In this document: one piece after another, positions 30,971-64,000 of the stretch | How the letters are laid out: each line of letters begins with the position of its first letter | Position numbering within the stretch: position 1 is the first letter of the stretch | Assembly: GCA_018350325.1 (NCBI GenBank) | Contig: JAEVLN010000020.1 | Coordinates: forward strand, 775,796 to 839,795 | Direction: 5' to 3' | DNA from: Globodera rostochiensis | Lineage: Eukaryota > Nematoda > Chromadorea > Rhabditida > Heteroderidae | DNA: 64,000 nucleotides | Translations under genes and position numbers: made by a program | The notes under the pieces: model-generated | Seen by the model: the letters and a program-made list of their open reading frames with translations, nothing else | What the model was told of the DNA's origin: nothing | The model's database searches: none

Positions 30971-33900
30971 GCAAAAAATGCCAACGGCCCAAAACATTCA
31001 TTGGACGCCGTCGAGACCACGCAAAAGAGCGTTTGTTGCAGTTGCTGCTTGCCAACGACGATGAGCATCTACGGGAAGGGGGGAAAATGCAACAGCGACG
31101 ACGAATTGAACGGTAGGGAATTACCAAAAAACCATTACATTTTATGCAAAAGTAACTTTCTGCCGCCCCGTCCCCCGCGGGGTCGTTTCCACTCAATTGA
31201 CTCCACCCACCGACCGACCCGCCAAATTCATTCATTGATTGGAAATGGCGTCGGTTTGGGAGTCGCAATTCCCTGCACATTTTGTTTTTTGCAATTTGGG
31301 AAATTTCCTTTTTGCTAAATAATTCCGGCATACAGATTAATGCTTATGAAACTTTCATTTGTTTTAATTTTATAATAATTAAAAAAATATATTTTTAAAA
31401 TAATTTATCAAAATTTATTTGCCCACCCCCGCGGCGTATTTCTCTCCTTTTATTTATGTTATTCCCCCCACCCCCCCCCCCCGCCGCGCCGCACATAAAT
31501 ATTTTCTATCGCTCCTTCAAAACAAAATAATTGCAAATTTATTCAAATCGATTTAGCAGAAAAAAGAGTGAAATGGAAATTGTGCCGAGTTTAGAAGCGG
31601 AACAACAAATGCAGAAGAGGACATTCACTAATTGGATCAATTTGCGTTTGGAGGAAGTGATTTGATTTGTTTTGATTTGATTAATTCGCTTGCCCCGTCG
31701 CCTTAAGCATTCATCCTCCGGCCGAGTCAACGATCTTTTTGTGGATATGCGCGACGGCATATTATTGTGCCATTTGCTGGAAGTTTTGACGGGCGAAGTT
31801 TTGGTGAATTCCCTCCGTTTTGTTTGTCCATTTGCAATTAATTAATAAATAAAGCTTGTCTCAACCCAAAATGCCATTGGTGCAGTTTCCGGCGACGGCC
31901 GAATGAATGGGCGAGAATTTTTTTGCCCTTTTTTTGGTATGGCCAATTCTTTGTTTTCAGAAAGCCCAAAAAACGGCACTTTTCCGATGATTCAAAACGC
32001 GTTTATTATTTTGCAAATTTGGCCGCTGCGTTGAAATGTCTTCGCGGAAATGGGCTGCATTTATTGAGCAATAATGTGACCGATTTGGCCAATGGAAATC
32101 CGCACGTTTGGCTTGGCCTCGTCTGGCAAATTATTTTGCACTTTCAGGTGGAGGGGGGGGGCAAATTGCCAAAATTATATTTTTGGTTGAAATTTGCTTA
32201 ACTCTGTTCTTTTTTTGCAAAGGTCGAGAAGGATTTGACGCTTTTGCGACAGTCCGCTTGGCACCAAATCCATCAACAACATTTGCAACTGGGACAAAAG
32301 TGTAGGGACAATTATTTGAGTTCGCCGAGTACGTCCAACGGGGGATTTGCGAGTCCGACGCCCGGGGGGAAAAAGGAGGAAGTGGAACGGCAATTGATCA
32401 GATGGATCAACGAGGAAGTGATCGGGTGAGCAATGGCATTTTAATGGTCTAATGTTTAATTAATGACGTTTTCCTTGGCCTTAAGCGATCTTGGCTTGCG
32501 GATAAACGATTTGGACCGGAGTTGGTGCGATGGGCGTCTCTTTTCTGCGCTCGTCCATCGATTTGCGCCTGCGCTGATGCCCCGGGGGGTCATTTTGGGG
32601 GGAGGGAACGATGCGAAAAGTGCGCAACTGAAGACCGAACGGGCGATGGAAATGGCCCGAATCCATTTGGGCATACGGTCGGCGGGAATTCATCAAAAAA
32701 TGCAATTAATCAATTTGCGAGCTTCTAACAAATATTTTCGATTGATTGTCCGAGTCCATTTGTCTGAATTCCTTTCAGTCCCTTGCTGGACCCACGCGAT
32801 TTGAGTACTTCTGAGTACGTGCCGGACAAACGGTCAATTGTCGCTTACATTTCCCAATTTGCACGTCTTCCCCAACGACAAATAAATCACCCAGAAAAAA
32901 TTGTTGGTGCTCAAATTGCATTAGAACGCCAAGAAAAAGTTACTTCTGAAGCAGAGGAGCCGCTCGAAAAAGTATTTTAAATTAACTTTAATTAATTAAA
33001 ATAATTTTAGGTTGGAGTGTTCAGAGAGTGCTTGGACTGGTTGAACTCCGTCGTTGTGGACGAACGGCTGACATTTGTGCAAGGACAGCGGATGAGCCTT
33101 CGACATTATATCGTACCGGGCGGCATTCATCAAAGCATTTAATACACAGTTTAGTGGTTTACACAAATGCGCGAAGAATTTTGGGAACGGAGGACAGTGA
33201 TCGTCGATCATTTGCTGGTGGCGATCAGAAAGAGCCAATCGGAGGGGCTGGGAAAGAGAGTTGAGAGGGAAATTGGGCGATTAGAGGTCTGACCACTTTC
33301 CTAATCGTCGTAAATCATTTTCTTTCTTTGGCAGTTGGCCATCAACGAATGGGAACGGCATTTTCTTACGTATTTTGTGGGGAGTCATTTGAATGAATTG
33401 AGCGCCCTTTCGAATTGGGTTTCTTTGGGGGAACGTTTGTTGTCCAATGCCGTGCCCGATCAGTTGGAGGCGAGCCAAGTAGACGAGACATTGCGGCGAT
33501 TGGAGAGGGCGATCAGCCGGGTGGAGGTCGATTTCCGTCGTTTAAATGTTTTGATTGATCGATGCGCAACAAATTTCAGAAATTCTTTCACGTCCTTTCC
33601 GATCAAAGGGCACTTCTTTACGACTTGGAACAGCAAATTGGTTCCGAATCGCCGTTCGAATCACTTTCCCCCGAATCTCTTCTCCAACCGATGCATTTGC
33701 TTGGCGATTTGAGACGCCGTTTTGATAGTCTCTCCGAAAGTCAACGGAATGCCATGGCCGAAATGCTTTTTGAACAGTCCCGGTTCCGTGCCCTGGAGCA
33801 ATTGGGCATTTTAAAATCAAAAATTCGAATTTGGAAAACGCAATTAAACAGCGCAGAACAGACACGGAATACGCTAACGGAATGGACGGTAATTACAATT

Positions 33901-42700: not shown

Positions 42701-45700
42701 GACAAATTGAAAACATTGGAAGTTGAGCTGCCGATAATAGCCGAGATTGATGAACATTTGCTGCTGATTGAAGTAAAATTAGAAAGGATGGACAAAAAAA
42801 AACATTTCATTTTTTAGGATACAAAAAAGGAAATACGAAAAAGAATGGACGAAGATCAAACTGAAGAATTACAAAAAAGCGAATGGCCTGAGAGAGTTAC
42901 GGAAGTGTTCTTGGATGTTATGCTCGTCCGGACAGAAACGGAGGATATTGAAAATGAATGCATTAAAAAAGTTGTGCTGAACATACCGAAAAAGAGGACC
43001 TGGAATGATGAAGCTGCTTCGAAGAAGGATCAGCTCCGTGAGCAGACTGCCCGGTTCAACGAGTGTTTGGTGGCGTTGGTTAGGCAGGCACACGAGAAGC
43101 TGGACGAGCCAGCTGCAATGCCACAGTCCTATGAGCAACTGTGCAATGGGCTGGACGAACCGATTGAACATGCCGAACAATTTGTCACCGAAAATGCAGC
43201 CGCAGTTGGCGAACAGGCGGCCACGCTGATCAGCTCCAACATTGCGGAGGCAAAGGAAGTGCGAGGGCGGCTAGAGCAGCGATGGCAACATTGGCTCCAG
43301 TTTGTCCGACAACGGGAGCTGGGCACAGCACAACTGGACAAGGCACGAGTTGCCATCGAGTTGGCCGAGCAGAAGGCCTGTCGAAGTCTGCCCGACGCCG
43401 AGTCGGACTACGAAAACCTAATGGTAGGTGGTTGAGTTGCTTCGTTTCAAAAGGGTTTGGAGTGCAAACTCCGATCTTGATCAGTCTGATCCAGCCCGGA
43501 TGTTGACCATGACTGGCCGAACAGTTGTTGGATCAGATAGATCATGCTCAGCGTGGAAACGCTGGTTCAGCAACACATGCACTTCTCTTTTTATGCCCTG
43601 AATTGCAGGAAGCGCAGAGCTCGCTCACTTCATTGAATGGCACCATCGACCAACTTCAGCAGTTGGCTGACAAGCTTGATCCACTGGCGATGGCGTATGC
43701 GGAAGTGCGATTCCTCGATGTGGACTTCGAGCAACTGGAGAAGCATTATGGAGATGTGCTTGGCCAAATGCTCAACGAAATTGAGCATGAAAGGGCTTTG
43801 ATGGCACAAATTGAGCGGACTGATCGGGAAACTGACGAGCTGGCGGCACAACTCCCATCGATGGAAATCAATCTGAAGGCGTTGCAGCATGTCCAACAGA
43901 CGACCATCCCTACCCTGGAGGCAAACATCGTCGTGCTGGAACAACAGAGTCAGCAACAGAAGGCGCTCAGGAAGTACGTGCTACGCTCCACTGCTGATCC
44001 CTCTCCGGATGGACTCGCACAACGCGTAGAACAGAGCAAAACTCAGGCACAGGAAGCGGCACAACAACTGGTGGACAGATCAGTTACCCGAATTCGGACT
44101 GTGCTGGTGCAAAGTCCTGCTGCTTCCGAACAGCTTCCCTCTGATCAACGGATTGATGAATGCGCGAAAGAGCTGGAGGACATACCGCTTGAACATCCAC
44201 TCAACAACGAACTCCGACAGCAATTGGAGCAGTTGAGAGGGAAAGTGAAGCGAAGAGATGCGATCCAATCGCAGATTGATGAGCGCTTGACAACCATTGG
44301 CAAGGAATTGGAAGGGTTCAGCGACCAGTTTGACAGCACAAAAATGCCGTCCAAAAGGGAGGATAAAAGGCCGAAGAAAAAGGGCAAAAGAGCTGCCGCC
44401 GACTCCGAGCAGCAGCAGCAGCAGCAGCAGAAATGCGCTGCTGAAAAGGTGCCCAGAGAAGAGCAAATCAACGAGCTTCGCAAAGCCCTGGAACGTCTGG
44501 AAAACGGGATTGTGCCGTCTTTGAGCTCGCTTCAGGACGAAGCCGTTCGGGAAGGCATTCCTTTACAGCCGACAGAAGAACAACAGCATCAACTGGTGCT
44601 GGCAAACCAAATTGTCCAAAGCTTAAAGGTGGGTGGTGTACTTTTATTTCTTTATGATAATTCATTCATTCATTTGTCAAGACTGATCTCGACAAGAGAG
44701 TGGCCGAGAATGAGCGGGCGAGCGCGGTCATCAACGAGATACGCGTGCTAAGAAGCCTTGTGGAAGGCATGGTTGTTGAACAAACTGCGGAAGAGGCGAG
44801 TCTGCAGCTGAATTTGGAGTCGGTGTCACAGCAACAGAAGGAGGTCGAAGAAGCAGCCAAAACGTTGGGTGAACAGCTCGGCAAGGTTGCGGCCAAATCG
44901 CAAGAAATCAGCAGCAACAGTTTGCACCCTGAAGAGCAAGCACTGATGAAGGAAAGCGAAGAGGAGGCCAGCAGGAAGATGGAAAGGCTGAACTCCCTCA
45001 ACACGGTGCTTCAACAACAGATTGAACTGCTCCGTGCCTGGGCCCGCGACAAGGACAGCCTCGAGTTGCGCACATCCTCGCTCATTGACGATTTTAAGAG
45101 GGTGGAGGAGAGGCGTCCGCAAGGACAGGTCACTGCAGCTGCAGCAGAACAAGAGCTGGCAAAGTTGGATGCTTTGAAGAGCGGAGTTGGCGAGGCCAGG
45201 GACGAGATGAAGCGAATGCAATGTTGGCTTGTCCAAAAGCTGCCAAAGTGTGGGAGGGCGCAGATCGAACTGCAGCTTCAGCCGGTCGAAGACAGCTTAG
45301 TGCAGCTGAACACCGACCTAGGCGGCACAATGCAGCAGCTGAACAAGTGTGTTGAGTTTGAACACAGTTTGTTGGAGGAGCGCACCGCACTACTCAATGC
45401 TCTGGACCATCTGAATGTGCAAGTGCAACTCGCTCGTGCAATTGAAGACCCACACGACCAGAGCAGCGAGATGGACAGGCTCCAGAACGAACTGGAGCAC
45501 ATTGAGCAGCAAATGCGCAATCTGGAGAACAAGTCCGTGGACCCGACACAGACAACAAGCCAAATAGCACATAGTGTCAATATCACGATGACAAGCATTG
45601 CAGATGCTCGCCATCAGTTGGAGGTGACTAAGAAGCTTCATTAGTTTTTATTCTGAATTCAATTTAAAAAAGTGCAACAATAATCCATTTCAGGCACGCA

Positions 45701-47100
45701 TTGCACAGAAGGCCAGGGATGAACATCTCCGTGAGCAGACTGCCCGGTTCAACGAGTGTTTGGTGGCGTTGGTTAGGCAGGCACACGAGAAGCTGGACGA
45801 GCCAGCTGCAATGCCACAGTCCTATGAGCAACTGTGCAATGGGCTGGACGAACCGATTGAACATGCCGAACAATTTGTCACCGAAAATGCAGCCGCAGTT
45901 GGCGAACAGGCGGCCACGCTGATCAGCTCCAACATTGCGGAGGCAAAGGAAGTGCGAGGGCGGCTAGAGCAGCGATGGCAACATTGGCTCCAGTTTGTCC
46001 GACAACGGGAGCTGGGCACAGCACAACTGGACAAGGCACGAGTTGCCATCGAGTTGGCCGAGCAGAAGGCCTGTCGAAGTCTGCCCGACGCCGAGTCGGA
46101 CTACGAAAACCTAATGGTAGGTGGTTGAGTTGCTTCGTTTCAAAAGGGTTTGGAGTGCAAACTCCGATCTTGATCAGTCTGATCCAGCCCGGATGTTGAC
46201 CATGACTGGCCGAACAGTTGTTGGATCAGATAGATCATGCTCAGCGTGGAAACGCTGGTTCAGCAACACATGCACTTCTCTTTTTATGCCCTGAATTGCA
46301 GGAAGCGCAGAGCTCGCTCACTTCATTGAATGGCACCATCGACCAACTTCAGCAGTTGGCTGACAAGCTTGATCCACTGGCGATGGCGTATGCGGAAGTG
46401 CGATTCCTCGATGTGGACTTCGAGCAACTGGAGAAGCATTATGGAGATGTGCTTGGCCAAATGCTCAACGAAATTGAGCATGAAAGGGCTTTGATGGCAC
46501 AAATTGAGCGGACTGATCGGGAAACTGACGATCTGGCGGCACAACTCCCATCGATGGAAATCAATCTGAAGGCGTTGCAGCATGTCCAACAGACGACCAT
46601 CCCTACCCTGGAGGCAAACATCGTCGTGCTGGAACAACAGAGTCAGCAACAGAAGGCGCTCAGGAAGTACGTGCTACGCTCCACTGCTGATCCCTCTCCG
46701 GATGGACTCGCACAACGCGTAGAACAGAGCAAAACTCAGGCACAGGAAGCGGCACAACAACTGGTGGACAGATCAGTTGCCCGAATTCGGACTGTGCTGG
46801 TGCAAAGTCCTGCTGCTTCCGAACAGCTTCCCTCTGATCAACGGATTGATGAATGCGCGAAAGAGCTGGAGGACATACCGCTTGAACATCCACTCAACAA
46901 CGAACTCCGACAGCAATTGGAGCAGTTGAGAGGGAAAGTGAAGCGAAGAGATGCGATCCAATCGCAGATTGATGAGCGCTTGACAACCATTGGCAAGGAA
47001 TTGGAAGGGTTCAGCGACCAGTTTGACAGCACAAAAATGCCGTCCAAAAGGGAGGATAAAAGGCCGAAGAAAAAGGGCAAAAGAGCTGCCGCCGACTCCG

Positions 47101-47131
<31 letters not shown>

Positions 47132-49798
47132 ATGCGCTGCTGAAAAGGTGCCCAGAGAAGAGCAAATCAACGAGCTTCGCAAAGCCCTGGAACGTCTGGA
47201 AAACGGGATTGTGCCGTCTTTGAGCTCGCTTCAGGACGAAGCCGTTCGGGAAGGCATTCCTTTACAGCCGACAGAAGAACAACAGCATCAACTGGTGCTG
47301 GCAAACCAAATTGTCCAAAGCTTAAAGGTGGGTGGTGTACTTTTATTTCTTTATGATAATTCATTCATTCATTTGTCAAGACTGATCTCGACAAGAGAGT
47401 GGCCGAGAATGAGCGGGCGAGCGCGGTCATCAACGAGATACGCGTGCTAAGAAGCCTTGTGGAAGGCATGGTTGTTGAACAAACTGCGGAAGAGGCGAGT
47501 CTGCAGCTGAATTTGGAGTCGGTTTCACAGCAACAGAAGGAGGTCGAAGAAGCAGCCAAAACGTTGGGTGAACAGCTCGGCAAGGTTGCGGCCAAATCGC
47601 AAGAAATCAGCAGCAACAGTTTGCACCCTGAAGAGCAAGCACTGATGAAGGAAAGCGAAGAGGAGGCCAGCAGGAAGATGGAAAGGCTGAACTCCCTCAA
47701 CACGGTGCTTCAACAACAGATTGAACTGCTCCGTGCCTGGGCCCGCGACAAGGACAGCCTCGAGTTGCGCACATCCTCGCTCATTGACGATTTTAAGAGG
47801 GTGGAGGAGAGGCGTCCGCAAGGACAGGTCACTGCAGCTGCAGCAGAACAAGAGCTGGCAAAGTTGGATGCTTTGAAGAGCGGAGTTGGCGAGGCCAGGG
47901 ACGAGATGAAGCGAATGCAATGTTGGCTTGTCCAAAAGCTGCCAAAGTGTGGGAGGGCGCAGATCGAACTGCAGCTTCAGCCGGTCGAAGACAGCTTAGT
48001 GCAGCTGAACACCGACCTAGGCGGCACAATGCAGCAGCTGAACAAGTGTGTTGAGTTTGAACACAGTTTGTTGGAGGAGCGCACCGCACTACTCAATGCT
48101 CTGGACCATCTGAATGTGCAAGTGCAACTCGCTCGTGCAATTGAAGACCCACACGACCAGAGCAGCGAGATGGACAGGCTCCAGAACGAACTGGAGCACA
48201 TTGAGCAGCAAATGCGCAATCTGGAGAACAAGTCCGTGGACCCGACACAGACAACAAGCCAAATAGCACATAGTGTCAATATCACGATGACAAGCATTGC
48301 AGATGCTCGCCATCAGTTGGAGGTGACTAAGAAGCTTCATTAGTTTTTATTCTGAATTCAATTTAAAAAAGTGCAACAATAATCCATTTCAGGCACGCAT
48401 TGCACAGAAGGCCAGGGATGAACATCTCCGTGAGCAGACTGCCCGGTTCAACGAGTGTTTGGTGGCGTTGGTTAGGCAGGCACACGAGAAGCTGGACGAG
48501 CCAGCTGCAATGCCACAGTCCTATGAGCAACTGTGCAATGGGCTGGACGAACCGATTGAACATGCCGAACAATTTGTCACCGAAAATGCAGCCGCAGTTG
48601 GCGAACAGGCGGCCACGCTGATCAGCTCCAACATTGCGGAGGCAAAGGAAGTGCGAGGGCGGCTAGAGCAGCGATGGCAACATTGGCTCCAGTTTGTCCG
48701 ACAACGGGAGCTGGGCACAGCACAACTGGACAAGGCACGAGTTGCCATCGAGTTGGCCGAGCAGAAGGCCTGTCGAAGTCTGCCCGACGCCGAGTCGGAC
48801 TACGAAAACCTAATGGTAGGTGGTTGAGTTGCTTCGTTTCAAAAGGGTTTGGAGTGCAAACTCCGATCTTGATCAGTCTGATCCAGCCCGGATGTTGACC
48901 ATGACTGGCCGAACAGTTGTTGGATCAGATAGATCATGCTCAGCGTGGAAACGCTGGTTCAGCAACACATGCACTTCTCTTTTTATGCCCTGAATTGCAG
49001 GAAGCGCAGAGCTCGCTCACTTCATTGAATGGCACCATCGACCAACTTCAGCAGTTGGCTGACAAGCTTGATCCACTGGCGATGGCGTATGCGGAAGTGC
49101 GATTCCTCGATGTGGACTTCGAGCAACTGGAGAAGCATTATGGAGATGTGCTTGGCCAAATGCTCAACGAAATTGAGCATGAAAGGGCTTTGATGGCACA
49201 AATTGAGCGGACTGATCGGGAAACTGACGATCTGGCGGCACAACTCCCATCGATGGAAATCAATCTGAAGGCGTTGCAGCATGTCCAACAGACGACCATC
49301 CCTACCCTGGAGGCAAACATCGTCGTGCTGGAACAACAGAGTCAGCAACAGAAGGCGCTCAGGAAGTACGTGCTACGCTCCACTGCTGATCCCTCTCCGG
49401 ATGGACTCGCACAACGCGTAGAACAGAGCAAAACTCAGGCACAGGAAGCGGCACAACAACTGGTGGACAGATCAGTTGCCCGAATTCGGACTGTGCTGGT
49501 GCAAAGTCCTGCTGCTTCCGAACAGCTTCCCTCTGATCAACGGATTGATGAATGCGCGAAAGAGCTGGAGGACATACCGCTTGAACATCCACTCAACAAC
49601 GAACTCCGACAGCAATTGGAGCAGTTGAGAGGGAAAGTGAAGCGAAGAGATGCGATCCAATCGCAGATTGATGAGCGCTTGACAACCATTGGCAAGGAAT
49701 TGGAAGGGTTCAGCGACCAGTTTGACAGCACAAAAATGCCGTCCAAAAGGGAGGATAAAAGGCCGAAGAAAAAGGGCAAAAGAGCTGCCGCCGACTCC

Positions 49799-49845
<47 letters not shown>

Positions 49846-52512
49846 ATGCGCTGCTGAAAAGGTGCCCAGAGAAGAGCAAATCAACGAGCTTCGCAAAGCC
49901 CTGGAACGTCTGGAAAACGGGATTGTGCCGTCTTTGAGCTCGCTTCAGGACGAAGCCGTTCGGGAAGGCATTCCTTTACAGCCGACAGAAGAACAACAGC
50001 ATCAACTGGTGCTGGCCAACCAAATTGTCCAAAGCTTAAAGGTGGGTGGTGTACTTTTATTTCTTTATGATAATTCATTCATTCATTTGTCAAGACTGAT
50101 CTCGACAAGAGAGTGGCCGAGAATGAGCGGGCGAGCGCGGTCATCAACGAGATACGCGTGCTAAGAAGCCTTGTGGAAGGCATGGTTGTTGAACAAACTG
50201 CGGAAGAGGCGAGTCTGCAGCTGAATTTGGAGTCGGTGTCACAGCAACAGAAGGAGGTCGAAGAAGCAGCCAAAACATTGGGTGAACAGCTCGGCAAGGT
50301 TGCGGCCAAATCGCAAGAAATCAGCAGCAACAGTTTGCACCCTGAAGAGCAAGCACTGATGAAGGAAAGCGAAGAGGAGGCCAGCAGGAAGATGGAAAGG
50401 CTGAACTCCCTCAACACGGTGCTTCAACAACAGATTGAACTGCTCCGTGCCTGGGCCCGCGACAAGGACAGCCTCGAGTTGCGCACATCCTCGCTCATTG
50501 ACGATTTTAAGAGGGTGGAGGAGAGGCGTCCGCAAGGACAGGTCACTGCAGCTGCAGCAGAACAAGAGCTGGCAAAGTTGGATGCTTTGAAGAGCGGAGT
50601 TGGCGAGGCCAGGGACGAGATGAAGCGAATGCAATGTTGGCTTGTCCAAAAGCTGCCAAAGTGTGGGAGGGCGCAGATCGAACTGCAGCTTCAGCCGGTC
50701 GAAGACAGCTTAGTGCAGCTGAACACCGACCTAGGCGGCACAATGCAGCAGCTGAACAAGTGTGTTGAGTTTGAACACAGTTTGTTGGAGGAGCGCACCG
50801 CACTACTCAATGCTCTGGACCATCTGAATGTGCAAGTGCAACTCGCTCGTGCAATTGAAGACCCACACGACCAGAGCAGCGAGATGGACAGGCTCCAGAA
50901 CGAACTGGAGCACATTGAGCAGCAAATGCGCAATCTGGAGAACAAGTCCGTGGACCCGACACAGACAACAAGCCAAATAGCACATAGTGTCAATATCACG
51001 ATGACAAGCATTGCAGATGCTCGCCATCAGTTGGAGGTGACTAAGAAGCTTCATTAGTTTTTATTCTGAATTCAATTTAAAAAAGTGCAACAATAATCCA
51101 TTTCAGGCACGCATTGCACAGAAGGCCAGGGATGAACATCTCCGTGAGCAGACTGCCCGGTTCAACGAGTGTTTGGTGGCGTTGGTTAGGCAGGCACACG
51201 AGAAGCTGGACGAGCCAGCTGCAATGCCACAGTCCTATGAGCAACTGTGCAATGGGCTGGACGAACCGATTGAACATGCCGAACAATTTGTCACCGAAAA
51301 TGCAGCCGCAGTTGGCGAACAGGCGGCCACGCTGATCAGCTCCAACATTGCGGAGGCAAAGGAAGTGCGAGGGCGGCTAGAGCAGCGATGGCAACATTGG
51401 CTCCAGTTTGTCCGACAACGGGAGCTGGGCACAGCACAACTGGACAAGGCACGAGTTGCCATCGAGTTGGCCGAGCAGAAGGCCTGTCGAAGTCTGCCCG
51501 ACGCCGAGTCGGACTACGAAAACCTAATGGTAGGTGGTTGAGTTGCTTCGTTTCAAAAGGGTTTGGAGTGCAAACTCCGATCTTGATCAGTCTGATCCAG
51601 CCCGGATGTTGACCATGACTGGCCGAACAGTTGTTGGATCAGATAGATCATGCTCAGCGTGGAAACGCTGGTTCAGCAACACATGCACTTCTCTTTTTAT
51701 GCCCTGAATTGCAGGAAGCGCAGAGCTCGCTCACTTCATTGAATGGCACCATCGACCAACTTCAGCAGTTGGCTGACAAGCTTGATCCACTGGCGATGGC
51801 GTATGCGGAAGTGCGATTCCTCGATGTGGACTTCGAGCAACTGGAGAAGCATTATGGAGATGTGCTTGGCCAAATGCTCAACGAAATTGAGCATGAAAGG
51901 GCTTTGATGGCACAAATTGAGCGGACTGATCGGGAAACTGACGATCTGGCGGCACAACTCCCATCGATGGAAATCAATCTGAAGGCGTTGCAGCATGTCC
52001 AACAGACGACCATCCCTACCCTGGAGGCAAACATCGTCGTGCTGGAACAACAGAGTCAGCAACAGAAGGCGCTCAGGAAGTACGTGCTACGCTCCACTGC
52101 TGATCCCTCTCCGGATGGACTCGCACAACGCGTAGAACAGAGCAAAACTCAGGCACAGGAAGCGGCACAACAACTGGTGGACAGATCAGTTGCCCGAATT
52201 CGGACTGTGCTGGTGCAAAGTCCTGCTGCTTCCGAACAGCTTCCCTCTGATCAACGGATTGATGAATGCGCGAAAGAGCTGGAGGACATACCGCTTGAAC
52301 ATCCACTCAACAACGAACTCCGACAGCAATTGGAGCAGTTGAGAGGGAAAGTGAAGCGAAGAGATGCGATCCAATCGCAGATTGATGAGCGCTTGACAAC
52401 CATTGGCAAGGAATTGGAAGGGTTCAGCGACCAGTTTGACAGCACAAAAATGCCGTCCAAAAGGGAGGATAAAAGGCCGAAGAAAAAGGGCAAAAGAGCT
52501 GCCGCCGACTCC

Positions 52513-52553
<41 letters not shown>

Positions 52554-55220
52554 ATGCGCTGCTGAAAAGGTGCCCAGAGAAGAGCAAATCAACGAGCTTC
52601 GCAAAGCCCTGGAACGTCTGGAAAACGGGATTGTGCCGTCTTTGAGCTCGCTTCAGGACGAAGCCGTTCGGGAAGGCATTCCTTTACAGCCGACAGAAGA
52701 ACAACAGCATCAACTGGTGCTGGCAAACCAAATTGTCCAAAGCTTAAAGGTGGGTGGTGTACTTTTATTTCTTTATGATAATTCATTCATTCATTTGTCA
52801 AGACTGATCTCGACAAGAGAGTGGCCGAGAATGAGCGGGCGAGCGCGGTCATCAACGAGATACGCGTGCTAAGAAGCCTTGTGGAAGGCATGGTTGTTGA
52901 ACAAACTGCGGAAGAGGCGAGTCTGCAGCTGAATTTGGAGTCGGTGTCACAGCAACAGAAGGAGGTCGAAGAAGCAGCCAAAACATTGGGTGAACAGCTC
53001 GGCAAGGTTGCGGCCAAATCGCAAGAAATCAGCAGCAACAGTTTGCACCCTGAAGAGCAAGCACTGATGAAGGAAAGCGAAGAGGAGGCCAGCAGGAAGA
53101 TGGAAAGGCTGAACTCCCTCAACACGGTGCTTCAACAACAGATTGAACTGCTCCGTGCCTGGGCCCGCGACAAGGACAGCCTCGAGTTGCGCACATCCTC
53201 GCTCATTGACGATTTTAAGAGGGTGGAGGAGAGGCGTCCGCAAGGACAGGTCACTGCAGCTGCAGCAGAACAAGAGCTGGCAAAGTTGGATGCTTTGAAG
53301 AGCGGAGTTGGCGAGGCCAGGGACGAGATGAAGCGAATGCAATGTTGGCTTGTCCAAAAGCTGCCAAAGTGTGGGAGGGCGCAGATCGAACTGCAGCTTC
53401 AGCCGGTCGAAGACAGCTTAGTGCAGCTGAACACCGACCTAGGCGGCACAATGCAGCAGCTGAACAAGTGTGTTGAGTTTGAACACAGTTTGTTGGAGGA
53501 GCGCACCGCACTACTCAATGCTCTGGACCATCTGAATGTGCAAGTGCAACTCGCTCGTGCAATTGAAGACCCACACGACCAGAGCAGCGAGATGGACAGG
53601 CTCCAGAACGAACTGGAGCACATTGAGCAGCAAATGCGCAATCTGGAGAACAAGTCCGTGGACCCGACACAGACAACAAGCCAAATAGCACATAGTGTCA
53701 ATATCACGATGACAAGCATTGCAGATGCTCGCCATCAGTTGGAGGTGACTAAGAAGCTTCATTAGTTTTTATTCTGAATTCAATTTAAAAAAGTGCAACA
53801 ATAATCCATTTCAGGCACGCATTGCACAGAAGGCCAGGGATGAACATCTCCGTGAGCAGACTGCCCGGTTCAACGAGTGTTTGGTGGCGTTGGTTAGGCA
53901 GGCACACGAGAAGCTGGACGAGCCAGCTGCAATGCCACAGTCCTATGAGCAACTGTGCAATGGGCTGGACGAACCGATTGAACATGCCGAACAATTTGTC
54001 ACCGAAAATGCAGCCGCAGTTGGCGAACAGGCGGCCACGCTGATCAGCTCCAACATTGCGGAGGCAAAGGAAGTGCGAGGGCGGCTAGAGCAGCGATGGC
54101 AACATTGGCTCCAGTTTGTCCGACAACGGGAGCTGGGCACAGCACAACTGGACAAGGCACGAGTTGCCATCGAGTTGGCCGAGCAGAAGGCCTGTCGAAG
54201 TCTGCCCGACGCCGAGTCGGACTACGAAAACCTAATGGTAGGTGGTTGAGTTGCTTCGTTTCAAAAGGGTTTGGAGTGCAAACTCCGATCTTGATCAGTC
54301 TGATCCAGCCCGGATGTTGACCATGACTGGCCGAACAGTTGTTGGATCAGATAGATCATGCTCAGCGTGGAAACGCTGGTTCAGCAACACATGCACTTCT
54401 CTTTTTATGCCCTGAATTGCAGGAAGCGCAGAGCTCGCTCACTTCATTGAATGGCACCATCGACCAACTTCAGCAGTTGGCTGACAAGCTTGATCCACTG
54501 GCGATGGCGTATGCGGAAGTGCGATTCCTCGATGTGGACTTCGAGCAACTGGAGAAGCATTATGGAGATGTGCTTGGCCAAATGCTCAACGAAATTGAGC
54601 ATGAAAGGGCTTTGATGGCACAAATTGAGCGGACTGATCGGGAAACTGACGAGCTGGCGGCACAACTCCCATCGATGGAAATCAATCTGAAGGCTTTGCA
54701 GCATGTCCAACAGACGACCATCCCTACCCTGGAGGCAAACATCGTCGTGCTGGAACAACAGAGTCAGCAACAGAAGGCGCTCAGGAAGTACGTGCTACGC
54801 TCCACTGCTGATCCCTCTCCGGATGGACTCGCACAACGCGTAGAACAGAGCAAAACTCAGGCACAGGAAGCGGCACAACAACTGGTGGACAGATCAGTTG
54901 CCCGAATTCGGACTGTGCTGGTGCAAAGTCCTGCTGCTTCCGAACAGCTTCCCTCTGATCAACGGATTGATGAATGCGCGAAAGAGCTGGAGGACATACC
55001 GCTTGAACATCCACTCAACAACGAACTCCGACAGCAATTGGAGCAGTTGAGAGGGAAAGTGAAGCGAAGAGATGCGATCCAATCGCAGATTGATGAGCGC
55101 TTGACAACCATTGGCAAGGAATTGGAAGGGTTCAGCGACCAGTTTGACAGCACAAAAATGCCGTCCAAAAGGGAGGATAAAAGGCCGAAGAAAAAGGGCA
55201 AAAGAGCTGCCGCCGACTCC

Positions 55221-55255
<35 letters not shown>

Positions 55256-58200
55256 ATGCGCTGCTGAAAAGGTGCCCAGAGAAGAGCAAATCAACGAGCT
55301 TCGCAAAGCCCTGGAACGTCTGGAAAACGGGATTGTGCCGTCTTTGAGCTCGCTTCAGGACGAAGCCGTTCGGGAAGGCATTCCTTTACAGCCGACAGAA
55401 GAACAACAGCATCAACTGGTGCTGGCAAACCAAATTGTCCAAAGCTTAAAGGTGGGTGGTGTACTTTTATTTCTTTATGATAATTCATTCATTCATTTGT
55501 CAAGACTGATCTCGACAAGAGAGTGGCCGAGAATGAGCGGGCGAGCGCGGTCATCAACGAGATACGCGTGCTAAGAAGCCTTGTGGAAGGCATGGTTGTT
55601 GAACAAACTGCGGAAGAGGCGAGTCTGCAGCTGAATTTGGAGTCGGTGTCACAGCAACAGAAGGAGGTCGAAGAAGCAGCCAAAACATTGGGTGAACAGC
55701 TCGGCAAGGTTGCGGCCAAATCGCAAGAAATCAGCAGCAACAGTTTGCACCCTGAAGAGCAAGCACTGATGAAGGAAAGCGAAGAGGAGGCCAGCAGGAA
55801 GATGGAAAGGCTGAACTCCCTCAACACGGTGCTTCAACAACAGATTGAACTGCTCCGTGCCTGGGCCCGCGACAAGGACAGCCTCGAGTTGCGCACATCC
55901 TCGCTCATTGACGATTTTAAGAGGGTGGAGGAGAGGCGTCCGCAAGGACAGGTCACTGCAGCTGCAGCAGAACAAGAGCTGGCAAAGTTGGATGCTTTGA
56001 AGAGCGGAGTTGGCGAGGCCAGGGACGAGATGAAGCGAATGCAATGTTGGCTTGTCCAAAAGCTGCCAAAGTGTGGGAGGGCGCAGATCGAACTGCAGCT
56101 TCAGCCGGTCGAAGACAGCTTAGTGCAGCTGAACACCGACCTAGGCGGCACAATGCAGCAGCTGAACAAGTGTGTTGAGTTTGAACACAGTTTGTTGGAG
56201 GAGCGCACCGCACTACTCAATGCTCTGGACCATCTGAATGTGCAAGTGCAACTCGCTCGTGCAATTGAAGACCCACACGACCAGAGCAGCGAGATGGACA
56301 GGCTCCAGAACGAACTGGAGCACATTGAGCAGCAAATGCGCAATCTGGAGAACAAGTCCGTGGACCCGACACAGACAACAAGCCAAATAGCACATAGTGT
56401 CAATATCACGATGACAAGCATTGCAGATGCTCGCCATCAGTTGGAGGTGACTAAGAAGCTTCATTAGTTTTTATTCTGAATTCAATTTAAAAAAGTGCAA
56501 CAATAATCCATTTCAGGCACGCATTGCACAGAAGGCCAGGGATGAACATCTCCGTGAGCAGACTGCCCGGTTCAACGAGTGTTTGGTGGCGTTGGTTAGG
56601 CAGGCACACGAGAAGCTGGACGAGCCAGCTGCAATGCCACAGTCCTATGAGCAACTGTGCAATGGGCTGGACGAACCGATTGAACATGCCGAACAATTTG
56701 TCACCGAAAATGCAGCCGCAGTTGGCGAACAGGCGGCCACGCTGATCAGCTCCAACATTGCGGAGGCAAAGGAAGTGCGAGGGCGGCTAGAGCAGCGATG
56801 GCAACATTGGCTCCAGTTTGTCCGACAACGGGAGCTGGGCACAGCACAACTGGACAAGGCACGAGTTGCCATCGAGTTGGCCGAGCAGAAGGCCTGTCGA
56901 AGTCTGCCCGACGCCGAGTCGGACTACGAAAACCTAATGGTAGGTGGTTGAGTTGCTTCGTTTCAAAAGGGTTTGGAGTGCAAACTCCGATCTTGATCAG
57001 TCTGATCCAGCCCGGATGTTGACCATGACTGGCCGAACAGTTGTTGGATCAGATAGATCATGCTCAGCGTGGAAACGCTGGTTCAGCAACACATGCACTT
57101 CTCTTTTTATGCCCTGAATTGCAGGAAGCGCAGAGCTCGCTCACTTCATTGAATGGCACCATCGACCAACTTCAGCAGTTGGCTGACAAGCTTGATCCAC
57201 TGGCGATGGCGTATGCGGAAGTGCGATTCCTCGATGTGGACTTCGAGCAACTGGAGAAGCATTATGGAGATGTGCTTGGCCAAATGCTCAACGAAATTGA
57301 GCATGAAAGGGCTTTGATGGCACAAATTGAGCGGACTGATCGGGAAACTGACGATCTGGCGGCACAACTCCCATCGATGGAAATCAATCTGAAGGCGTTG
57401 CAGCATGTCCAACAGACGACCATCCCTACCTTGGAGGCAAACATCGTCGTGCTGGAACAACAGAGTCAGCAACAGAAGGCGCTCAGGAAGTACGTGCTAC
57501 GCTCCACTGCTGATCCCTCTCCGGATGGACTCGCACAACGCGTAGAACAGAGCAAAACTCAGGCACAGGAAGCGGCACAACAACTGGTGGACAGATCAGT
57601 TGCCCGAATTCGGACTGTGCTGGTGCAAAGTCCTGCTGCTTCCGAACAGCTTCCCTCTGATCAACGGATTGATGAATGCGCGAAAGAGCTGGAGGACATA
57701 CCGCTTGAACATCCACTCAACAACGAACTCCGACAGCAATTGGAGCAGTTGAGAGGGAAAGTGAAGCGAAGAGATGCGATCCAATCGCAGATTGATGAGC
57801 GCTTGACAACCATTGGCAAGGAATTGGAAGGGTTCAGCGACCAGTTTGACAGCACAAAAATGCCGTCCAAAAGGGAGGATAAAAGGCCGAAGAAAAAGGG
57901 CAAAAGAGCTGCCGCCGACTCCGAGCAGCAGCAGCAGCAGCAGAAATGCGCTGCTGAAAAGGTGCCCAGAGAAGAGCAAATCAACGAGCTTCGCAAAGCC
58001 CTGGAACGTCTGGAAAACGGGATTGTGCCGTCTTTGAGCTCGCTTCAGGACGAAGCCGTTCGGGAAGGCATTCCTTTACAGCCGACAGAAGAACAACAGC
58101 ATCAACTGGTGCTGGCAAACCAAATTGTCCAAAGCTTAAAGGTGGGTGGTGTACTTTTATTTCTTTATGATAATTCATTCATTCATTTGTCAAGACTGAT

Positions 58201-59919
58201 CTCGACAAGAGAGTGGCCGAGAATGAGCGGGCGAGCGCGGTCATCAACGAGATACGCGTGCTAAGAAGCCTTGTGGAAGGCATGGTTGTTGAACAAACTG
58301 CGGAAGAGGCGAGTCTGCAGCTGAATTTGGAGTCGGTGTCACAGCAACAGAAGGAGGTCGAAGAAGCAGCCAAAACGTTGGGTGAACAGCTCGGCAAGGT
58401 TGCGGCCAAATCGCAAGAAATCAGCAGCAACAGTTTGCACCCTGAAGAGCAAGCACTGATGAAGGAAAGCGAAGAGGAGGCCAGCAGGAAGATGGAAAGG
58501 CTGAACTCCCTCAACACGGTGCTTCAACAACAGATTGAACTGCTCCGTGCCTGGGCCCGCGACAAGGACAGCCTCGAGTTGCGCACATCCTCGCTCATTG
58601 ACGATTTTAAGAGGGTGGAGGAGAGGCGTCCGCAAGGACAGGTCACTGCAGCTGCAGCAGAACAAGAGCTGGCAAAGTTGGATGCTTTGAAGAGCGGAGT
58701 TGGCGAGGCCAGGGACGAGATGAAGCGAATGCAATGTTGGCTTGTCCAAAAGCTGCCAAAGTGTGGGAGGGCGCAGATCGAACTGCAGCTTCAGCCGGTC
58801 GAAGACAGCTTAGTGCAGCTGAACACCGACCTAGGCGGCACAATGCAGCAGCTGAACAAGTGTGTTGAGTTTGAACACAGTTTGTTGGAGGAGCGCACCG
58901 ATCTGAGCGAAGGACCGTCGACGCAGCGGCAAATGTCGGAGGAACCCCAGTACGACGTGGACGCGGCGGCTGAAATACTTTCAGCCATTTATGCGGGGCG
59001 AGAGCCACGAGAAGTGATCAGAGAGCACGGGCTGGACAAGTTGGAGCTGGACCTCGACGACGATTACGGCGACGGGGAGACGGAAGGTGGGCTAATGACA
59101 AAAGCAATCAGACAAATCAATTGTCCCTTCGCCCCCCCCCCCCATTTGCAATTTGGGGAAACAATTATTTAAATCCAGAAAAAGAGAAAAAAATTTGTGA
59201 TTTATGGTAAAAGTTGAAATATTATTTTGAATGCCTAACAGGAAATGCATTAAAAACAATGAAAATATTTCCATTTTTACCCAAAAGTGATAAGATTGAA
59301 ACTTCTTGATCAATCAACTTCATATTTCTCGAACGAAAGTGCGATTGGGGCGTGTGGAATTGAGACGACAATAAATGTATGAACAGCGATGATTTTGAGT
59401 CGATTGAGGGGACAAAACAAAATGTCCCCCTCCCCCCCCTCTTTTCATTCACCGATTTAGCGGGTAAAAGAAATCATCGCCTTTCGTCGCTGTTGGGAGT
59501 TGCGATCAAATGGAGTTTAATGCCGCTGTTTCTACAGATCGTTTGGAAGCCGAGTCGAGCCTTCAACCCCCACGCCCATCGGCGTCCTCTGGCATGGATT
59601 CCTCCACATCGCCCGTTCCCGAAGACCCAAAACACGCGGAGGAACAGCACAGCCAGCAGAAGGCAATGGCACAGCGACAACACTCTCGCTGGAGGCGAGT
59701 GCTCCGCACAGCGTTGCCACTTCAGGTCCTTCGATTGGACTTCCCGGGTCAAATTATTTATTAATCCGCATTTTCTTCCAGGCAATGCTCGTCCTTCTTT
59801 TGGGTGCCGCTTGTTTGGTGCCACATTGTGACGACGAATATTGCTGCCATCTGCTGAACAACTTCGCCCGCAGTTTTGACACTCAGTTGGACTTCATCAA
59901 CGGGCCGCCACCCTTTTAA
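30971..59919 (+). CDS. anc-1: ANC-1, giant nesprin (CH-CH, coiled-coil repeats, KASH)
   Basis: Giant nesprins anchor nuclei and other organelles: N-terminal calponin-homology (CH) domains bind actin and the C-terminal KASH domain spans the outer nuclear membrane and binds SUN proteins. Exon 30971-31112 (KERLLQLLLANDDEH) joins in phase (CG+A) to 31560, leading into CH1. CH1 continues at 31709 and 31962, and CH2 lies at 32222-32820. Exons to 43,030 encode coiled-coil, spectrin-like sequence (for example 33340, 34146, 35398, 35700, 37697, 38037, 39314, 40368, 40704, 41930, 42661). From 43,034 to 58,900 the coding sequence runs through six near-identical units. Unique exons (MSEEPQYDVDAAAEILSAIY) follow, and the KASH exon ends INGPPPF with the stop at 59917-59919. 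C. elegans ANC-1 has the same plan with 903-residue repeats. The first coding exon is uncertain, as are some mid-gene exon limits (36.0-37.7 kb, 38.7-40.3 kb). Confidence 0.93.
31560..32820 (+). other. anc-1: ANC-1 tandem CH (actin-binding) domains
   Basis: CH1: QKRTFTNWINLRLEE (31613-31657), then HSSSGRVNDLFVDMRDGILL (31709) and CHLLEVLTGEVL; exon 31962-32148 has ALKCLRGNGLHLLSNNVTDL and WLGLVWQIILHFQ, matching the nesprin/spectrin CH1 end. A Ser/Gly-rich linker follows (SSPSTSNGG, 32320). CH2: VERQLIRWINEEVI (32380), LRINDLDRSWCDGRLFSALV (32500-32555), then LLDPRDLSTSEYVPDKRSIV (32783-32842) and AYISQFARLPQRQ. Motif order is colinear with human nesprin CH1-CH2. Confidence 0.93.
36046..36292 (+). 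repeat. Four-copy 61-65 bp minisatellite inside an ANC-1 open frame
   Basis: AGCATTTTTTGATC recurs at 36061, 36126, 36189 and 36250 (steps 65, 63, 61), each followed by CCCCCGAAGGCATTCCCTTT and a G run of 8-10. Unit lengths differ, so successive copies are read in different frames (GIPFHR versus KAFPFIVK), yet the frame 35702-36469 stays open across all four. Coiled-coil coding sits on both sides (LDELGRMLSTASGDLRRL; KTMEKLRQQRHSLQRKIDSL). It may be translated, or be a small unrecognised intron. Confidence 0.9.
36664..37072 (+). repeat. Polypyrimidine (CT-rich) tract in an ANC-1 intron
   Basis: About 400 bp of nearly pure C/T on the plus strand. It starts with a perfect (CT)n stretch (36676-36725), then diverged CTCTCTTTCC-type units, including two near-copies of a ~105-bp block around 36765-36850 and 36900-36975. 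It lies in an intron of about 1.2 kb between exons ending near 36447 and starting at 37697. Confidence 0.9.
39633..39832. repeat. Cluster of long poly-C and poly-G tracts in an ANC-1 intron
   Basis: Seven or more runs of 7-14 G or C, several abutting in opposite sense (CCCCC-GGGGGGGG). They can pair as inverted repeats. The flanking coding segments are near 39314-39590 and 39855-39970. Confidence 0.85.
41755..41868 (+). repeat. 42-bp (14-residue) tandem repeat in the ANC-1 coding sequence
   Basis: TCAACAACAATTCCG recurs at 41755, 41797 and 41839, giving STTIPVEKASSSNL, STTIPIEKASSSNL and STTIPIEKAT. The period is a multiple of three, so the frame is kept. Confidence 0.9.
43034..45726 (+). 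repeat. anc-1: ANC-1 large repeat, copy 1 (CAG x7)
   Basis: Unit of 2693 bp. Exon A runs to 43423 (REQTARFNECLVALVRQAHE to SDYENLM), intron 43424-43608 (or to 43524), exon B to 44628 (EAQSSLTSLNGTIDQLQQL to NQIVQSLK) with a Gln tract at 44410-44430, intron 44629-44681, exon C 44682-45623 (TDLDKRVAENERASAV to RHQLE), intron 45624-45693, then the start of the next exon A (ARIAQKARDEH). All introns are phase 0. The left junction is mid-exon: copy 1 is preceded by a unique sequence (RTWNDEAASKKDQ). Copy 1 has GAG (Glu) at 43837-43839, and ACC (Thr) at 44086 where the other copies have GCC (Ala). Confidence 0.98.
45727..48425 (+). repeat. anc-1: ANC-1 large repeat, copy 2 (CAG x9)
   Basis: 2699 bp; same exon-intron plan as copy 1 with nine CAG codons at 47103-47129. 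Differences seen: GAT (Asp) instead of GAG near 46530, and a private T in CGGTTTCAC near 47523. Confidence 0.98.
48426..51139 (+). repeat. anc-1: ANC-1 large repeat, copy 3 (CAG x14)
   Basis: 2714 bp, the longest unit, with fourteen CAG codons at 49802-49843. It has Asp in ETDDLA, a private C in CTGGCCAACC near 50017, and ACATTGG instead of ACGTTGG near 50276 (shared with copies 4 and 5). Confidence 0.98.
51140..53847 (+). repeat. anc-1: ANC-1 large repeat, copy 4 (CAG x12)
   Basis: 2708 bp with twelve CAG codons at 52516-52551. Asp in ETDDLA, and the ACATTGG variant near 52984 shared with copies 3 and 5. Confidence 0.98.
53848..56549 (+). repeat. anc-1: ANC-1 large repeat, copy 5 (CAG x10)
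   Basis: 2702 bp with ten CAG codons at 55224-55253. It has Glu in ETDELA (shared only with copy 1), a private T in AAGGCTTTGCAG near 54695, and the ACATTGG variant near 55686. Confidence 0.98.
56550..58900 (+). repeat. anc-1: ANC-1 large repeat, copy 6 (CAG x6), truncated
   Basis: Six CAG codons at 57926-57943. Identity stops at 58900 inside exon C (LLEERT), where unique coding sequence takes over (DLSEGPSTQRQMSEEPQ), so about 87% of a unit is present. It has Asp in ETDDLA, ACGTTGG as in copies 1-2, and a private T in CTACCTTGGAG near 57432. Confidence 0.98.
59541..59919 (+). other. anc-1: ANC-1 C-terminal exons with KASH domain
   Basis: After CAG at 59538-ff, an exon encodes a Ser/Pro-rich segment (SASSGMDSSTSPVPEDPK), then RWRRVLRTALPLQ. 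An intron ends at CTTCCAG (59781), and the last exon gives the membrane helix AMLVLLLGAACLVPH, CDDEYCCHLLNNFARSFD, and the terminus INGPPPF. KASH domains end in a short lumenal tail with a PPPX motif that inserts in the SUN-domain pocket; this one fits. Confidence 0.93.
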
Positions 59920-61161: not shown

Positions 61162-63844
<2,683 letters not shown>

Positions 63845-64000
63845 GCCCGTGATGTTCAAGACGGACAGAAGACAAAATTCTGTGATAATTTTTGTTTGTG
63901 CGTTAAATGCCTGTTAAAGCGTATCATATGCAACTTCCATTTTTGATTAGAATTATCTGTTGGGAGAAATCCCCCACCAAATTGTTGACAAAATTGATCA
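63845..64000. other. 3' flank of GMPPA
   Basis: No feature seen in the last 156 bases apart from GMPPA 3' untranslated sequence. Confidence 0.5.

What the first reader, a model, noticed from the sequence alone, without database searches (positions are those of the whole stretch)
43034..58900. Six near-identical 2.7-kb exon-plus-intron units inside the ANC-1 coding gene
Unit starts at 43034, 45727, 48426, 51140, 53848 and 56550 give steps of 2693, 2699, 2714, 2708 and 2702 bp. Subtracting three bases per CAG codon leaves exactly 2672 bp in every full unit, so introns and exons have no other indels. I noticed only about seven substitutions. Introns should drift freely, so this points to very recent amplification or ongoing homogenisation by gene conversion or unequal exchange. 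C. elegans ANC-1 is known to have near-identical 903-residue repeats. Here the unit is about 795 or 823 residues, so the same behaviour appears in a distant nematode with a different unit.
Basis: partly seen in the sequence, partly recalled or inferred. Interest (0 to 1): 0.9.

Follow-up and report, generated by a model that had tools for sequence, protein, structure and literature searches.

The report
Nuclear-anchor gene that recopies its middle
In a nematode that is likely a potato-cyst-nematode relative, the giant gene of a predicted nucleus-anchoring protein holds six 2.7-kb blocks that are about 99.9% identical, introns included; several related worms carry such blocks too, nearly alike within a species but different between species, so the blocks are likely being copied over one another.

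Summary
Six head-to-tail units lie at 43034-58900, with 7 substitutions in all, no indel outside one CAG tract (7, 9, 14, 12, 10, 6 codons) and identical introns. The gene is an ANC-1 gene (Spectrin_Anc-1, KASH and CH matches). A full unit is 795-802 residues; 823 is not supported.

Related proteins decide the interpretation. Window copies differ by 0-3 residues from each other but by 26-40 from the copies in another Globodera protein, which shares the array's left edge. Heterodera trifolii, Ditylenchus, Aphelenchoides, Dirofilaria and three Caenorhabditis proteins carry their own near-identical arrays; 8 of 16 other nematode proteins examined do not. Unit lengths differ (about 1430, 903, 795, 596 residues), yet the units align as collinear parts of one ~1430-residue unit. 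Trees group copies by species; copy 1 with copy 1 is rejected. Two substitutions in the window array occur in all four combinations, a mark of inter-unit exchange.

I conclude that this is concerted evolution of an old array. Near-identical C. elegans repeats were already known; I found no paper describing homogenisation across nematodes with lineage-specific unit lengths, in a library lacking most subscription papers. Raw reads could not be checked.

The parts
43034..58900 (+). tandem array of six ANC-1 units (5 full, sixth truncated)
   Evidence: last matching base 58900 read
43034..45726 (+). copy 1, 2693 bp, (CAG)7; private change T290 (ACC) at 44086; shares E207 (GAG) at 43839 with copy 5
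45727..48425 (+). copy 2, 2699 bp, (CAG)9; private synonymous change at 47524
48426..51139 (+). copy 3, 2714 bp, (CAG)14; private synonymous change at 50017; ACA at 50277 shared with copies 4 and 5
51140..53847 (+). copy 4, 2708 bp, (CAG)12; ACA at 52985; no private substitution
53848..56549 (+). copy 5, 2702 bp, (CAG)10; GAG at 54653 (as copy 1) together with ACA at 55687 (as copies 3, 4): the mosaic copy; private synonymous change at 54695
56550..58900 (+). copy 6, truncated, (CAG)6; private synonymous change at 57431
43424..43608 (+). intron A (185 bp, phase 0); same in copies 2-6 at 46117, 48816, 51530, 54238, 56940
   Evidence: predicted from frame and GT-AG; no transcript data
44629..44681 (+). 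intron B (53 bp, phase 0); same in copies 2-6 at 47328, 50042, 52750, 55452, 58142
   Evidence: predicted
45624..45693 (+). intron C (70 bp, phase 0); same in copies 2-5 at 48323, 51037, 53745, 56447
   Evidence: predicted
44410..44430 (+). CAG tract of copy 1 (poly-Q); others at 47103-47129, 49802-49843, 52516-52551, 55224-55253, 57926-57943
42818..43033 (+). single-copy ANC-1 exon sequence abutting the array; the residues KKDQ before the first unit also precede the array of P0002
58901..59086 (+). single-copy linker after the array
59538..59724 (+). linker exon before the membrane span
   Evidence: predicted splice sites
59781..59919 (+). last exon: predicted membrane span and KASH domain ending in PPPF and a stop
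31681..31842 (+). ORF piece with part of the first calponin-homology (CH) domain, 66-76% identical to N-termini of six nematode ANC-1 proteins over 32-39 residues
32460..32801 (+). ORF piece with second CH domain

Best explanation
The six units, about 99.9% identical inside an ANC-1 gene, belong to an array that a second Globodera protein also carries, and they are likely kept alike by repeated exchange (unequal crossing-over or gene conversion) between units rather than by one recent amplification. Shown: near-identity within a species and divergence between species in several nematode lineages; the same left edge in two Globodera arrays; two substitutions in the window in all four combinations; different unit lengths in different lineages that align collinearly with parts of a ~1430-residue unit, with copies within an array agreeing closely. 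Inferred: sequence-identical neighbours pair out of register, so units are gained, lost and overwritten; a change, even loss of half a unit, can then spread through the array; edge copies are overwritten less often and decay. Purifying selection on the rod sequence limits which changes survive (5 synonymous and 2 non-synonymous substitutions). The protein itself is predicted to be a mostly helical, spectrin-like rod between N-terminal CH domains and a C-terminal KASH membrane anchor, so unit number would set rod length or the number of binding sites.
For: Window copies differ by 0-3 residues (15 pairs; one of these columns is the junction residue of truncated copy 6) against 26-40 to the 5 copies of another Globodera protein (30 pairs) and 181-264 to 5 H. 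trifolii copies (30 pairs, partial copies included). H. trifolii copies differ by 1-8 among themselves (10 pairs). There are 28 fixed differences and 0 shared polymorphic columns among 794 columns between the two Globodera arrays. Tree: the window copies form one clade 100/98, H. trifolii 100/100, Globodera P0002 69/86; AU rejects copy 1 with copy 1, p 1.1e-5. Near-identical copies are present in 8 of the 16 other nematode proteins examined: P0002, P0003, P0004, P0008, P0009, P0011, P0037, P0040. Collinear units between lineages, e.g. Ditylenchus with Dirofilaria E 3e-61. Four-gamete conflict between sites 806 and 1831; the state E207 sits in the non-adjacent copies 1 and 5 while the 10 copies of P0002 and H. 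trifolii have D, so E is likely derived. A double hit of any one site by chance has probability about 0.0065, about 0.002 for the same base.
Against: No reads were available, and polishing of an assembly can move single substitutions between near-identical copies, so the one mosaic copy is weak on its own. Comparison with other species is at protein level, on gene models made by others. P0002 is marked partial and is probably a fused model; its copies differ by 4-17 residues, some carry gaps or an insert, and its clade has modest support (69/86). The diverged terminal copies do not form one clade across species (AU p 2.7e-6), so they do not by themselves date the first duplication, and long branches are in play there. 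8 of 16 nematode proteins show no near-identical array, and the scan sees only ungapped repeats of 60% identity or more. Copies in C. nigoni, Aphelenchoides and P0002 models are not all of one length (768-903, 581-596, 775-798). Gene conversion and unequal crossing-over cannot be told apart here.
Confidence: 0.85

Rival explanations
1. One recent amplification: a single or low-copy unit was multiplied to six in this species after it split from its relatives, with no continuing exchange.
For: Very low divergence (0.105% mean) and identical introns fit a young array equally well if only the window is seen.
Against: Another Globodera has 5 copies with the same left edge, and H. trifolii at least 5 with the same register; independent amplification in every lineage would be needed. 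The four-gamete pattern needs exchange or a recurrent mutation.
Confidence: 0.1
2. Assembly artefact: one or two real units multiplied by the assembler.
For: No reads or depth could be checked, and near-identical units are a classic assembly problem.
Against: The six copies have six different CAG lengths and 5 of 6 have a private substitution. The sixth ends at a defined in-frame edge. Two relatives show 5 copies in other assemblies. Collapse is probably the commoner error: a C. brenneri protein from a 144-kb contig (P0010) shows only the terminal unit where one from a 15.9-Mb contig (P0009) also shows two near-identical full units.
Confidence: 0.04
3. Selection alone: copies stay identical because every residue is constrained, without exchange between them.
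For: Only 2 of 7 substitutions change a residue (2 or fewer, P 0.007), so constraint exists.
Against: Silent sites and introns are nearly or fully identical too, and the same unit differs by about 4% from another Globodera and by a third from Heterodera, so it is free to change between species.
Confidence: 0.01

Closest known systems
C. elegans ANC-1 repeats (six of 903 residues, almost 100% alike in DNA; PMC8139857, passages)
   Same: same gene, same copy number, near-identity, position between N-terminal region and KASH; C. briggsae and C. nigoni show the same 903-residue unit
   Different: unit 795-802 residues here and only partly collinear with the Caenorhabditis unit; a poly-Q tract of different length in each copy; three introns per unit here (intron content of the C. 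elegans repeats not checked)
Nebulin triplicate region, human NEB (10-kb, eight-exon block three times, 99% identity; PMC12402328, passages)
   Same: multi-exon blocks with introns repeated inside one giant structural-protein gene and nearly identical
   Different: unrelated protein; 3 blocks; there the copy number is known to vary and cause disease, here variation in a population is untested
Nematode polyprotein allergens such as ABA-1 (PMC3079579, search listing only)
   Same: nematode protein made of tandem repeated units
   Different: units are cut apart after translation and bind lipid; here the units form one predicted rod
LPA kringle IV-2 array (recalled) and filaggrin repeats (PMC5225520, search listing only)
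   Same: intragenic repeat arrays with copy-number change
   Different: unrelated genes

Membership tests
ANC-1 / giant KASH protein (nesprin orthologs) | C-terminal KASH domain | tested here: met
   PF10541 88.5 bits against cut-off 23; closest solved relatives are Nesprin-1, -2 and -3 KASH peptides
ANC-1 / giant KASH protein (nesprin orthologs) | N-terminal pair of CH domains | tested here: met
   ORF pieces at 31681 (23.3 bits, under the cut-off of 26, as a fragment) and 32460 (27.6 bits, over it); matches to the N-termini of nematode ANC-1 proteins. That they are spliced to the array is predicted, not shown
ANC-1 / giant KASH protein (nesprin orthologs) | ANC-1-type spectrin-like segment in the repeat | tested here: met
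   PF24611 119.5 bits against cut-off 33.2, unit residues 76-189
ANC-1 / giant KASH protein (nesprin orthologs) | spectrin fold of the repeat | tested here: inconclusive
   AlphaFold2 of one exon (342 residues) is helical but poor (mean pLDDT 65); no PDB match at E 0.001 or better, best E 2.5; a spectrin chain ranks 18 of 18, E 9.7
ANC-1 / giant KASH protein (nesprin orthologs) | anchors nuclei or ER | not testable with these tools
   function known from C. elegans (PMC8139857, passages)
Concertedly evolving tandem array | copies more alike within than between species | tested here: met
   0-3 against 26-40 residue differences; 0 shared polymorphic columns, 28 fixed, of 794
Concertedly evolving tandem array | array older than the species split | tested here: met
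   same left edge in window and P0002; same register and linker in H. trifolii; an insert at the place of intron B in P0001, read as an unspliced intron. At protein level only
Concertedly evolving tandem array | direct sign of exchange between copies | tested here: met
   four-gamete conflict 806/1831; it is the only conflict among the 7 sites, and polishing errors are not excluded
Concertedly evolving tandem array | copy-number variation among individuals | not testable with these tools
   no reads or population data; copy number differs between species as annotated: 6 window, 5 P0002, at least 5 H. trifolii

The most novel reading that the evidence does not exclude
The ANC-1 rod of chromadorean nematodes is one ancient tandem array, present before Rhabditina, Spirurina and Tylenchina split, that has been rewritten by inter-unit exchange ever since. 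Even its unit length turned over array-wide: from about 1430 residues (Ditylenchus, Dirofilaria) to 903 in Caenorhabditis (middle lost), about 795 in cyst nematodes (second half lost) and 596 in Aphelenchoides (two parts lost), each large deletion shared by the copies of its array. A giant structural protein is thus edited as a population of exon-plus-intron units inside one gene, with rod length tuned by unit length times copy number.
Probability: 0.6. Interest if true: 0.75.

Novelty: new variant of a known kind. Interest (0 to 1): 0.62.

Why it matters
It turns a curiosity of C. elegans (six near-identical 903-residue repeats) into a comparative system: one gene, several lineages, four unit-length classes, each array nearly uniform. 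That makes three questions testable: how fast a protein-coding array is homogenised, how a deletion of half a unit reaches every copy without breaking the frame, and whether cells select for total rod length or for unit number. It also warns that some assemblies may collapse this gene, and that substitutions across its rod are not those of independent codons.

Tried and rejected
Self-BLAST of each protein to list internal repeats returned no off-diagonal match for any of 14 proteins, even those with obvious repeats. I judged the method faulty and replaced it by matching the window unit to each of 12 proteins, pairwise unit alignment and an offset-identity scan. A test whether the diverged terminal copies form one clade, which would have dated the first duplication directly, failed: one clade (8 terminal against 29 other rows) is rejected (AU p 2.7e-6). 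Rows left out of that tree: P0002 copy 5 (split by an insert), P0003 copy 1 and P0011 copy 1 (partial), P0001, and the terminal copy of P0010; P0037-P0040 had not been fetched yet. A search for a diverged copy just upstream of the window array gave nothing clear (best E 0.0007). Structure prediction and fold search were uninformative. C. elegans ANC-1 itself did not appear in either long-protein search, so its repeats rest on the paper. The reading of intron identity as strong extra evidence was rejected (probability 0.43 by chance). A paper search for LPA kringle units with four terms found none.

Full report
Observation. I aligned the six units base by base. Across the six copies there are 7 substitutions, plus a CAG tract of 7, 9, 14, 12, 10 and 6 codons. 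Mean pairwise difference is 2.8 of 2672 bp. The array ends at base 58900, inside copy 6. An exact 32-base probe from the unit start has 6 matches in the 92.6-Mb own genome, all in this array, and the two flank probes have one match each.

Gene. The unit carries the Pfam family Spectrin_Anc-1 (E 1.1e-34). The last exons carry a KASH domain (E 3.6e-25) ending in PPPF, and two ORF pieces at 31.7 and 32.5 kb carry CH domains, the first as a fragment below Pfam's cut-off. The C-terminus matches solved Nesprin-1, -2 and -3 KASH peptides. All three introns per unit are in phase 0, so a full unit contributes 795-802 residues and keeps the frame. The splice sites are predicted; no transcript was available. 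Of the 7 substitutions 5 are synonymous and 2 change a residue, fewer changes than neutrality predicts (P 0.007). No substitution is intronic, but with so few that is expected almost half the time (0.43).

Relatives. A search with one unit found one protein among the 7995 candidates scored, P0001 of Heterodera trifolii (835 residues). It runs from inside one unit through its end into the start of the next, so Heterodera has the same head-to-tail junction. A search with the KASH end of the 4938-residue model found 35 proteins, 11 of them nematode (P0002-P0012). A third search (7 proteins among 994 candidates scored) added C. nigoni (five copies of the 903-residue unit, some shortened in the gene model), Aphelenchoides besseyi (five copies of 581-596) and two Caenorhabditis proteins without an array. 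In all, 8 of the 16 other nematode proteins examined (P0001-P0012, P0037-P0040) hold near-identical arrays. The 8 that do not are P0001 (a fragment), P0005 (Meloidogyne hapla), P0006 (Rhabditophanes), P0007 (Auanema), P0010 (C. brenneri, short contig), P0012 (Strongyloides; other repeats at offsets 658 and 691), P0038 and P0039. The two vertebrate nesprins scanned (of 24 listed) have none by the same scan.

Within against between. Within the proteins, copy identities are 97.8-99.5% (P0002), 98.8-99.9% (H. trifolii), 99.7-100% (Ditylenchus), 100% (C. briggsae), 100% (C. brenneri, two full copies), 98.7% (Dirofilaria, two full copies), 95.2-100% (Aphelenchoides, five copies) and 98.8-99.9% (C. 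nigoni, five copies). The first stretch that I cut in C. brenneri, Dirofilaria and Aphelenchoides is only 76, 80-81 and 42-43% identical to the rest, because it reaches beyond the array edge or is a decayed copy. Window copies differ from each other by 0-3 residues, from P0002 copies by 26-40 and from H. trifolii copies by 181-264. There are 28 fixed differences and no shared polymorphic column among 794 columns between window and P0002. The tree gives one window clade (100/98) and one H. trifolii clade (100/100), with P0002 weaker (69/86). Holding copy 1 of the window with copy 1 of P0002 is rejected (AU p 1.1e-5); copies 2-5 were not tested.

Age of the array. Window and P0002 have the same residues at the left edge (KKDQ before LREQTARFNE), and the H. 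trifolii, P0002 and window arrays are followed by the same linker (SEGPST...) (sequences printed). The right edges differ: truncated copy 6 in the window, five copies plus about eleven residues in the P0002 model, and in H. trifolii a terminal copy whose first ~100 residues are like the array and whose rest is diverged. Units of Ditylenchus and Dirofilaria align over essentially their whole length (24% identity, E 3e-61). The window unit aligns with Ditylenchus 1-714. The C. briggsae unit aligns, residues 438-902, with Dirofilaria 940-1425 and, residues 1-252, with the stretch that follows across the Dirofilaria junction. The Aphelenchoides unit aligns with Ditylenchus 4-278 and 550-858. The simplest reading (inference) is one ancestral ~1430-residue unit from which different parts were lost, each loss reaching the copies of its array. 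These taxa span Rhabditina, Spirurina and Tylenchina. Against a simple history, diverged terminal copies do not form one clade: those of Ditylenchus and H. trifolii group with their own arrays (99/98, 100/99), those of C. briggsae and C. brenneri with each other (98/88), with long branches.

Exchange inside the window. Sites 806 and 1831 occur in all four combinations, the only such conflict among the 7 sites. The state GAG (E207) in copies 1 and 5 is likely derived, since all ten P0002 and H. trifolii copies have D. A tree of duplications without exchange cannot make this without a second identical mutation (about 0.002). Polishing errors in the assembly remain possible.

Rate. The unit is 95.6% identical between the two Globodera proteins. 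Five single-copy upstream stretches are 76.9-93.9% and the C-terminal linker with KASH 87.6% identical. In Caenorhabditis the unit is 94.1% identical between C. nigoni and C. brenneri, and the first 2380 residues 88.1%; the C. briggsae and C. brenneri C-terminal parts are 93.9%, about the same as their unit (94.1%). So in these comparisons the unit is at least as conserved as its flanks.

Mechanism and function. I favour unequal crossing-over or gene conversion between aligned units, with selection on the rod; the two cannot be separated here. In C. [quoted passage not shown] That the rod of this nematode does the same is inferred. The structure model of one exon is helical but of low confidence and matched nothing significantly.

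Literature. The C. elegans repeats are known. Nebulin's triplicate region is a close analogue in another gene (PMC12402328, passages). In the held library no paper has anc-1 together with repeats and concerted evolution, or anc-1 with Globodera. Three broader searches (2 papers, 6 papers, 8 listed of 20) showed no title or abstract start on nematode-wide ANC-1 arrays. Subscription papers are mostly absent, so this is not proof of novelty.

Noticed in passing
P0003:3873-4141, P0004:7487-7738, P0008:4308-4569, P0009:5085-5348, P0011:5767-6017, P0007:3036-3299, P0040:6703-6956: A diverged terminal partial unit lies between the array (or single unit) and the KASH end in these nematode ANC-1 proteins; window and P0002 show none. 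Those tested do not form one clade, as if edge copies were recruited from the array and then decayed in each lineage.
   Followed up: partly
window 40367-43033 against P0002:272-1026: Single-copy upstream parts of the gene are less conserved between the two Globodera proteins (76.9-93.9%, five stretches) than the repeated unit (95.6%).
   Followed up: partly
P0010 and P0009 (both C. brenneri): The protein from a 144-kb contig shows only the terminal unit while the one from a 15.9-Mb contig shows two full array units as well: some assemblies probably collapse this array.
   Followed up: no
P0012 (Strongyloides), P0006 (Rhabditophanes): Self-similar stretches at other offsets (658 and 691; 622-628, 1250, 1833, 3083) suggest different internal repeats in these ANC-1 proteins.
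   Followed up: no
window 41755-41865: In-frame 42-bp (14-residue) minisatellite, 2.6 copies, in an ANC-1 open frame before the array.
   Followed up: no
window 36044-36291: 63-bp minisatellite, 3.9 copies, inside an open frame in the upstream part of the ANC-1 locus; coding or intronic is unclear.
   Followed up: no
window 26748-29198: G-rich minisatellite of about 2.4 kb with nested periods (about 25, 152, 265, 417 bp) upstream of the gene.
   Followed up: no
window 61900-63850: Downstream gene pieces with weak nucleotidyl-transferase and hexapeptide / GMPPB_C matches (all below Pfam's cut-offs), possibly a GDP-mannose pyrophosphorylase-like gene.
   Followed up: no
P0002: The public record is named a pyruvate dehydrogenase phosphatase, partial, although it is ANC-1 with a KASH end: probably a fused gene model.
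   Followed up: no
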